NCBI GenBank assembly: GCA_009823395.1
Contig: CM020519.1
Span: 14,450,501 to 14,514,500 of the forward strand
DNA: 64,000 bases
From: Thamnaconus septentrionalis
Taxonomy: Eukaryota; Chordata; Actinopteri; Tetraodontiformes; Monacanthidae
Reading direction: 5' to 3'
The position numbers were made by a program, and so were the translations under genes. Under the pieces are notes generated by a model that was given only the letters and a program-made list of their open reading frames with translations, ran no database searches and had not been told where the DNA came from. Positions 39,001-42,000 of this stretch are shown here, piece by piece. How positions within the stretch are numbered: the first letter of the stretch is position 1; each line of letters begins with the position of its first letter.

Positions 39001-42000
39001 AGTTTTTATCCAATCATATTCCAGCTAGCTTGAGTTGCCAGGTGCCATGAAATGTGCCTTAGGCCTGCAGAACCGACATGGCAGGCTACTGTCCACTGTA
39101 AAGTGAACGGACCTCAGTTAGTTGCGATAGCCAATAAGATCGCGAGTCTGTGATGCCGAGATCAGCTAGCTAGCAGGGATGCGCGATATGTTATCGTTTG
39201 CGATATATCGTCCAAAAAAAAATCCCCCACGGTAAAAGTGTCATCTTACAGGTAAAGTCCCAGTGATTGTCACTTCCCCAAGGATGCGAAATTTGTCCTC
39301 CGCATTTGAACCATCCCCCAATACTGAGTGCCAAGCAGGGAGGCAGTGGGTACCATTTTTACAGTCTTTGGTATGACGCGGCCGGGGATCGAACCCACAA
39401 CCTGCCAGTCTCAGGGCGGACACTCTACCACTAGACCACTGAGCTGGCGGTCTTGCAATAATAACGATTATCTCCTGTTGATGACGCCATCACGTGCATG
39501 TAGCACAATAACAAGCATGGCGGAATAAGGCGGGGCTAATTGGATAAGAACCTGAGAACCTTACAGACTGAACTCAACCCGGAGATGCAGTGTCATCATC
39601 TGCAAATTAAAATGCAAATAACGTGGTGCATTGCTGCAGCAGCTGCGCCAACATGTTCAATTCTTTAATAACAGTTCATTAGTTTGCTTCCTTATCGTCT
39701 TGTTGGTCTCTCATACGAATCGGCGATGCAGTTTATTGGACAAGTCTGAACAAGGGTTTAAATTGAGAGTGCTGTTTTGGTGGACTTTGTCAAGGAATCT
39801 CTCAAAATCACCTTTTTTTGTGAGTTTTGATTGTATCCATGGCCTTCTTAAGGTCTTTACGCACCAGGTCATAGACCAATTATGATTTAAATGATCCGGC
39901 AACTACGTTTTGCTCAACAGCGTCACCTATATGACGGTCATGATGTGTCAGTGTGATTCTCTATGGATTCTTGAGGCGTGGTGTCATATTGGGGGTAATA
40001 TGGGGCGTATTCATTTAAGGTGGACTAAATATGACGTCACTGACGGCCAAGGCATGAAATGCACGGCCCGCCACTGATATCTGCATACAGACATGAGGTG
40101 ACCTTCACAGAAGAAACCCACGCGAGCATGCCACTTGACTTTTCACGGCCACAGGACGTACTGGAACGGCACCGTCACACTCACTACAGATTTACAGCGA
40201 GGAAAGGAAAAGAAAAAAGAAGAAGGAAAAAAAAAAGACAACTGATGGGTTTGAATCCAGGTCGGAACAGCTAAGTCAGCTAAGTCCTTCCTTACCGCTG
40301 CGGTCAGAACGGCACGGCCTGCTTTTCTAGCGCCGGGGGAGCTGAGCCTCTGCGCCCTGTGTCTCCTGAGTTGCTCATGCAGCCTCTGACCCCTGACGGA
40401 CCTCTGCTTGAAGGCTTTCGCCCGCCTAGCGGCGCGGGGCCCCTGGGCGCCTGGGCGGCGTCCCGCCGGGCGCGCTCCCACGGCTCGGACGGGCTCGCGG
40501 GGCTAAGGAAGCGTTCGGGGACGGGCCGGCAGCGGGGTGCCAACGCAGGGCACGGGGGCGGGGGGCGAGGCTGAGGCGAGCCCGGTACTTACTGCCAGGT
40601 CCTGAACTAGCTTCTCCTCAAAGGAGTACTCCTCTGCCTCTATCCGAAGTCTCTGATAGGACGGGATGAAGAAGTTGATAGCGCGATGCCTGAGAGTGGG
40701 GGGAGGAGGTGAGAGAGGAATGGAGGGGGAGGGAGAGGAGGTGGAGGGGGGTAGAGTGGCGTTAGGGAGGGTTCCGGTGAGGTGTTTAATTGTTTTGGAG
40801 TTTTTTTTGTCTTTTGCAGCAGGAGGAAGAGGTGGAGGAGGAGGAGGAGGAGACAGGAAGGACAGATGTAGGCGGAGGAAAGGGGGGGTTACAGGAAGTG
40901 CATATCAGGCAAGGTGGTGATTGGTCAATGTGGGACCCACTGGCTCTTCTGACTGGTCACTTTTGGTCTGTAAAATACCTGCGGTAAACTTTCGTTGGGT
41001 TGTTTGAGATGGCTGCGCTCTTTCTTTGTCTGTTTGTTTTTTAGCGAATCTCAGCATCTATCAAGGTTGAGCTTCTAAATGTCAGTTCTGTATTCGACAA
41101 TCCATTGAACAGAGAAGCACAAATGTGTTAAACAACTGCAAAACTGTACAAAAAAAAAACAATAGAACTCTTGATCAGGAAAGAATCAAAGGGATCCAGC
41201 AAAAGAACAAAAAACATTGGAAACTGGGTTCAAGGAAGCCAAAGTCAATTGATTTTCTTTTGTACCCCCCACTTCTTCCTTTAGGGAACTACCTTTAGCA
41301 GGCACGTGTTCCCATTTTACAGGAATAAGTCGCCTTCAGTCGTATTCAGGCCTTGTTTTTTTGTATTTTTTTTATCCCCCTTTGGCTGACCAATCAGAAT
41401 CAACAGTGCAGGAGCAAACCGGTTGCTATGGGCAGAGATTGGTCCCCGGCCTGGTGGATGGAGGTGGGGGAGGGGTAGGGGGAAGGGAACGGGGAGGGAA
41501 GGGTCTGAAGAGATGAAGCATTCGCCCCGTTGGTTTCAACTTTACCGTCAGCAGGGAGAACAGGCGGTCAAAACTGGAGGCTTTGAACGCCCTCTCCAGC
41601 CAAACCTCCCGATAGCCATTCAGGAAGTAATTATTATTTTTGTATCTGAGGGGAAGGATGGGGTTGAGTTATGCAAGAAAAAAAAAACAAAAATAAAAAA
41701 AACAAAACAGAGGAGAGAGTGTCATTAGGAGAGGGTGACGAGGGGCACGCAAACAAGAGCAACAAGGCCCCGTCCCCCTCAAAAAATACTTCTGCGACTT
41801 CTTGTTATGTAAGGTTAGACTCGAGGTTGGGGGGTAAACCTTTTTTTTTTTTTAATTCTTCCAAAGTCTGCAGCCGACTCACCTGGGGAGGTTGTAGAGC
41901 GGAGCCATGCGGAAGCAGGCCACCACCGCACGCTTGCGCTGCTTGGAGAGCAGCTTCTGCCACACGCACTTCTTGTTCCTCAGAGGCTGCTCCACCTGTT

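What the first reader, a model, noticed from the sequence alone, without database searches (positions are those of the whole stretch)
40593..41645. Tandem homologous exons next to the RyR3 calmodulin site: a candidate mutually exclusive pair
Exon 32a (41546-41645) and exon 32b (40593-40689) both follow the calmodulin-binding exon 31. Both start in phase 2, end in phase 0 and have good splice sites. Their peptides align (N, FL/FF, Y, F and L positions), and 32a keeps the RyR family pattern FLxGYxxxW. Using both shifts frame and stops at TGA within 32b; using neither stops at TGA four codons into exon 33. The mammalian RyR proteins I can recall have only one segment here. A switch just after the calmodulin and redox-Cys helix could change Ca2+/calmodulin control of the channel. 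Insect RyR genes are known to use mutually exclusive exons, but I do not know of this pair in vertebrates.
Basis: partly seen in the sequence, partly recalled or inferred. Interest (0 to 1): 0.85.

Follow-up and report, generated by a model that had tools for sequence, protein, structure and literature searches.

The report
Ancient either-or exon pair in RyR3
A fish calcium-release channel gene (RyR3) carries two alternative versions of one small exon next to the calmodulin site; the same pair is annotated in other fishes and the extra version also occurs in land vertebrates, so it is a genuine, very old and already annotated splice switch whose effect on the channel was not tested here.

Summary
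The reading as a mutually exclusive pair is well supported, but the pair is neither new nor fish-specific. 32b (40593-40689), not 32a, is the standard RyR exon: it matches RyR1 and RyR2 PDB chains. 32a (41546-41645) alone matches one PDB sequence, RyR3 chain 9c1e (E 0.035), and strongly with its flanks. Of 227 listed proteins, 94 carry 32a only, 125 32b only, 6 both or parts of both, 2 neither/unplaced. In Takifugu, Etheostoma, Pungitius and Gasterosteus, annotated isoforms differ only by this swap. 32a also occurs in Polypterus, a frog, alligator, pigeon and marsupials; no single land vertebrate with both was seen. A human study names RYR3 among genes with tandem-duplicated exon substitutions, exon not named. 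The window's fish is close to the filefish Nelusetta, which shares its unusual Trp-to-Arg change in 32b. Effect on calmodulin/Ca2+ control: untested.

The parts
   Evidence: aligned to the 30-residue RyR1 peptide 2bcx_B (that this peptide is a calmodulin complex is recalled)
41546..41645 (-). exon 32a, alternative exon seen here only in RyR3-type proteins, peptide YKNNNYFLNGYREVWLERAFKASSFDRLFSLLT
40593..40689 (-). exon 32b, standard RyR exon, peptide HRAINFFIPSYQRLRIEAEEYSFEEKLVQDLA
38122..38234 (-). exon 33, common downstream exon KTPMKIVEEEEEEVAEIQPDPLHQLILHFSHNALTER
40690..41545 (-). 856-nt intron between 32a and 32b; AG-free zone of about 120 nt before 32b with a CTAAC branch-like motif at -73
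41646..41882 (-). 237-nt intron before 32a; AG-free zone of about 132 nt with a CTAAT branch-like motif at -80

Best explanation
An ancient pair of tandem-duplicated, mutually exclusive exons in the RyR3 gene. Each mRNA takes 32a or 32b; taking both or neither shifts the frame and should lead to nonsense-mediated decay (inferred). The choice swaps the 32-33 residues directly after the calmodulin-binding helix, which lead into the central domain (domain name recalled). 32b is the ancestral-type exon shared with RyR1 and RyR2; 32a arose by duplication in RyR3 before the ray-finned/lobe-finned split (inferred from its occurrence in both). Shown here: the frame logic, homology, conservation and annotated isoform pairs in other fish. 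Inferred: splicing control (long AG-free zones suggest distant branch points and regulated 3' splice sites), and the effect, most likely a change in how the calmodulin segment couples to the core, since 32a lacks the acidic EAEEYSFEEKLVQDL stretch (window charge +2 against -2).
For: Frame logic. 32b matches RyR2 (E about 8e-5) and RyR1 chains (E about 0.02-0.05); 32a alone matches one PDB sequence at E up to 10, RyR3 chain 9c1e, E 0.035, and the joined 31+32a+33 peptide aligns to 9c1e over all 153 residues, 217 bits, flanks included. 94 of 227 listed proteins 32a only, 125 of 227 32b only. Isoform pairs differing only by the swap: Takifugu rubripes X12/X15, Etheostoma cragini X7/X8, Pungitius X4/X5, Gasterosteus X9/X10 (4 of 9 comparisons; the other 5 hold the swap plus one or two further differences). 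The 35 32a peptides form one group, support 0.57. AG-free zones before 32a and 32b are 132 and 121 nt; of 70 raw acceptor hits mapped with the Nelusetta protein, 12 of 7 nt or less were dropped as within-exon, leaving 58, in which 32b is the longest (next 120 and 116); 32a, absent from that protein, was measured apart. Charges.
Against: 6 of 227 proteins carry both exons or parts of both: P0003, P0011, P0040, P0079, P0089, P0090; by name unnamed, hypothetical, partial or plain records, none an 'isoform X' model; two (P0011, P0089) use only part of 32b. Four 32a entries (P0038, P0072, P0091, P0092) stop midway in 32a. No RNA reads were seen, and no isoform pair for the window's own species or for any single land vertebrate. 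Tree support is modest on 33 residues. Charge ranges overlap (32a -3 to +3; 32b with RyR1 and RyR2 -5 to -2), so a charge switch is not universal. Splicing-factor motifs: best p 0.04 of 20 printed counts.
Confidence: 0.93

Rival explanations
1. 32a is a fortuitous open frame or decaying duplicate with decoy splice sites, not used in mRNA.
For: The window pair alone aligns weakly (p 0.017); no RNA data seen.
Against: Exact 33-residue identity in 25 proteins of 10 species, 32a-type segments in tetrapod entries and in a solved RyR3 chain, annotated isoforms.
Confidence: 0.02
2. A real pair, but not strictly exclusive: 32a is a regulated extra exon, and double inclusion or skipping is used on purpose to shut the mRNA down by nonsense-mediated decay.
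For: Both double inclusion and skipping give early stops; 6 of 227 proteins show both exons or parts of them.
Against: The double-exon records look like automatic predictions by name; 4 of 9 compared isoform pairs swap cleanly and the other 5 contain the same swap.
Confidence: 0.1
3. The switch has little effect on the channel: the segment is a tolerant linker and both versions are near neutral.
For: No functional test is available here; 32a varies between clades (13 of 33 residues shared by the window and PDB RyR3).
Against: Within percomorph ryr3 entries 32a is nearly frozen, and across 35 distinct 32a peptides N4, N5, W15, L16, D26 and L28 are at least 91% conserved (positions 7-8 and 32-33 were partly fixed by the collecting pattern and are not counted). 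Both types occur in RyR3 entries of fishes and of tetrapods, in tetrapods from different species.
Confidence: 0.25

Closest known systems
RYR3 tandem-duplicated exon substitution event of the human gene set (PMC9741552; abstract, one passage and one methods section seen)
   Same: Same gene, same kind of event: tandem duplicated exons used one at a time.
   Different: The main text does not say which exon; supplements could not be read, so identity with this pair is likely but not shown.
RyR3 chain 9c1e_B / 9c1f (PDB; called a cryo-EM structure in a passage of PMC12627627)
   Same: Carries the 32a-type segment at residues 3496-3526, directly after the same calmodulin segment.
   Different: Species not shown by the tool; shares 13 of 33 residues with the window's 32a.
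Mutually exclusive exons of insect RyR genes (PMC3787966 and others, search listings; PMC3342285, passages)
   Same: Either-or exons in a RyR gene.
   Different: Not compared by position here; PMC9741552 treats the vertebrate, arthropod and nematode cases as convergent (passage).
RyR1 alternative segments ASI and ASII (recalled)
   Same: Small regulated changes in the same general region of RyR channels.
   Different: Those are short cassette segments, not a swap of homologous exons (recalled).

Membership tests
Mutually exclusive tandem-duplicated exons | Two adjacent exons with homologous peptides | tested here: met
   Profile comparison E 1.1e-7 over 18 columns; window pair alone p 0.017
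Mutually exclusive tandem-duplicated exons | Same phases, and only one-of-two usage keeps the frame | tested here: met
Mutually exclusive tandem-duplicated exons | Transcripts with either exon exist in the same gene | tested here: met
   Annotated isoform pairs in four other fish; annotation only, and not in the window's own species
Mutually exclusive tandem-duplicated exons | No, or rare, transcripts with both or neither | tested here: inconclusive
   6 of 227 proteins with both or parts of both, 1 neither, 1 not placed; no RNA reads available
RyR3 (vertebrate ryanodine receptor 3) | Gene matches RyR3 better than RyR1 or RyR2 | tested here: met
   217 bits to the RyR3 chain against 151 (RyR1) and 137 (RyR2) for 31+32a+33 with the exon before; Nelusetta RYR3 maps along the window
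RYR3 pair of the human list (PMC9741552) | Same exon as in that list | not testable with these tools
   Main text gives the gene name only; no supplement look-ups allowed

The most novel reading that the evidence does not exclude
A RyR3-only splice switch, kept since the common ancestor of bony vertebrates, exchanges the segment linking the calmodulin helix to the channel core and so sets two modes of calmodulin/Ca2+ (and perhaps redox) control; RyR1 and RyR2 are fixed in the 32b mode, and the solved RyR3 chain (9c1e) shows the 32a mode. In filefish the 32b form is further changed at its otherwise near-invariant tryptophan.
Probability: 0.35. Interest if true: 0.6.

Novelty: already known. Interest (0 to 1): 0.35.

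Why it matters
Comparisons of RyR3 with RyR1 and RyR2 next to the calmodulin site depend on which exon the clone carried: the solved RyR3 chain 9c1e has a 32a-type segment, while the RyR1 and RyR2 chains matched here have the 32b type. If the two forms differ in calmodulin or Ca2+ response, this is a selectable setting of a calcium-release channel that can be tested directly by swapping about 32 residues.

Tried and rejected
Rejected: 32a as an artefact or fish novelty. Thought unlikely: steric exclusion between the exons, since the intron is 856 nt. No RNA family at gathering score in 38000-43500. Repeats between 40200 and 41900 are mostly homopurine or A/T runs; no convincing docking/selector pair. 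Splicing-factor motif counts: best p 0.04 among the 20 intron/motif combinations printed (27 tested), taken as nothing. A third protein search with the frog 32a region returned only itself, 1 candidate, so sharks, lampreys and a possible 32a in RyR1/RyR2 genes remain untested. A first attempt to collect 32b peptides matched none because of a wrong pattern, so its profile comparison was against RyR1 and RyR2 only; corrected. A first splice used a wrong exon-31 end; corrected.

Papers. Seen: PMC9741552 (abstract, outline, one passage, one methods section); passages of PMC12627627, PMC3342285, PMC13215552 (turkey; names other RYR3 variants, AS-193 and AS-81, not this pair), PMC6114036, PMC3548711; PMC4465641 (2015 study of alternatively spliced homologous exons): its main text has no RYR3 or ryanodine. 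[quoted passage not shown] The first may well describe this pair; that is a guess. Statements about print rest on the listings of ten searches (one search listed 20 of 71 papers, the others all they found).

Full report
What is there. The window carries, on the minus strand, the 3' part of a fish ryr3 gene. Exon mapping with a recalled mammalian RyR3 sequence and with the RYR3 protein of the filefish Nelusetta ayraudi (P0122) places exons from about 63.3 kb down to 17.9 kb. The big exon at about 31.3-30.0 kb matches Nelusetta at 417 of 435 aligned positions, so the source is a relative, most likely another filefish or near kin (inference). After the calmodulin-site exon (41883-41995) lie 32a (41546-41645) and 32b (40593-40689), then exon 33 (38122-38234).

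Frame. With correct boundaries, 31+32a+33 and 31+32b+33 read through; both exons together stop in 32b, and skipping both gives R-K-P-P-stop.

Which exon is standard. The 32b peptide matches PDB chains of RyR2 (E about 8e-5) and RyR1 (E about 0.02-0.05) at the expected place. The 32a peptide matches a single PDB sequence at E up to 10, the RyR3 chain 9c1e, residues 3496-3526, weakly (E 0.035). With its flanking exons, the 32a form aligns to 9c1e over all 153 residues, where 9c1e reads HKINNFFLSTFQRVWLEKVNEKTQYDRLIPILM. So a solved RyR3 carries the 32a version. The RyR1 peptide 2bcx (a calmodulin complex, recalled) covers query residues 51-80; the exon-32 segment starts at residue 84, i.e. right after it.

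Conservation. A protein search with exon 31 plus 32a listed 120 of 1,690 hits, one with 32b listed 120 of 146 hits; together 227 distinct proteins. By pattern: 94 32a only (four of them with 32a cut short), 96 32b only, 29 32b with at least the start of a read-through extension, 4 plus 2 with both or parts of both, 1 neither, 1 not placed (cut-short ones). The lists are the best-scoring ones, so the proportions say nothing about usage. 25 proteins of 10 species have the window's 32a peptide exactly (species from the names). 32a also occurs in Polypterus, the frog Ascaphus, alligator, a pigeon and marsupials, and in teleost 'ryr3-like' entries, consistent with a duplicate gene. A 32b-type peptide in a gray whale entry (P0093; preceded there by unrelated residues) and 32a in marsupials and 9c1e show both types in RyR3 of tetrapods, but no single tetrapod species with both was seen in these lists. 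That 9c1e is mammalian is recalled, not shown.

Either-or usage. In Takifugu rubripes (X12/X15), Etheostoma cragini (X7/X8), Pungitius (X4/X5) and Gasterosteus (X9/X10) the annotated isoforms differ only in this segment; of 9 comparisons made, all contain the swap, 4 nothing else, 5 one or two further differences elsewhere. These are automatic annotations; their RNA support was not seen. The window species itself has no isoform data here; for Nelusetta only a 32b isoform was listed.

Homology and age. 32a and 32b profiles align at E 1.1e-7 over the first 18 columns only, and in a small tree rooted on RyR1 all 35 32a peptides group together with support 0.57. Against RyR1 and RyR2 alone the 32a profile gave only E 7.5e-4, probability 10. 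Since 32b resembles RyR1 and RyR2, 32a is most simply a duplicate fixed in RyR3 before ray-finned and lobe-finned lineages parted (inference). Whether sharks or lampreys, or RyR1/RyR2 genes, have it was not tested.

How it probably works. Exclusivity is at least enforced by frame. The 856-nt spacing makes simple steric exclusion unlikely. Both acceptors have unusually long AG-free stretches, 132 nt (32a) and 121 nt (32b). Of 70 raw acceptor hits, 12 with values of 7 or less were dropped as within-exon; in the 58 left, 32b is the longest, and 32a, measured apart, is longer still, though two others reach 116 and 120. Such zones are typical of distant branch points in regulated exons (recalled). 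No splicing-factor motif is convincingly enriched. The swap replaces the acidic second half of 32b (window charge -4) by a basic one in 32a (+2), but across species the charge ranges of the whole segment overlap.

Relation to what is known. [quoted passage not shown], methods section). The exon is not named in the text. A related 2015 study does not mention RYR3 in its main text. Together with the public isoform entries and 9c1e, the pair counts as already known at the level of annotation; no functional study of it showed up in the listings of ten searches of one open library, and older subscription papers on RyR3 splicing could not be read.

A local oddity. The window's 32b reads FIPSYQRLR where 123 of 124 fetched 32b segments have Trp at the last position; the one exception is Nelusetta, with the same Ser and Arg. 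That argues for a lineage change rather than a sequencing error.

Noticed in passing
window 40296-40592 (minus strand): Other percomorph fishes have RYR3 entries in which 32b reads through its donor into a 94-102 residue extension ending at a second donor: 31 of 227 proteins show at least its first residues LAVST (29 of the 32b-only and 2 of the both-exon ones), 15 of 227 contain its SVRGQRL motif, 9 of these 15 from one species (Halichoeres). In the window both ends keep the frame and a second donor-like GTAAGG lies at 40295, but a TAG interrupts the middle, so this third option looks lost or decay-prone here.
   Followed up: partly
window 40593-40689: Trp-to-Arg and Ala-to-Ser changes in 32b, shared only with Nelusetta among 124 segments.
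   Followed up: partly
window about 33795-33809 (minus strand): A 15-nt microexon-like stretch encoding HTKR, matching the optional 5-residue insert (IHTQRG/INSQWG in other fish isoforms, FHTKRG in Nelusetta), probably the RyR3 counterpart of RyR1 ASII (recalled name).
   Followed up: partly
fetched proteins such as P0005 and P0041 (Channa argus, two contigs): Some teleosts have a second gene, 'ryr3-like', with its own 32a version (HKNNNYFLNAYRHIWLEIMHENTDYDSLLSMLT in 22 proteins), so both duplicates kept the alternative exon.
   Followed up: no
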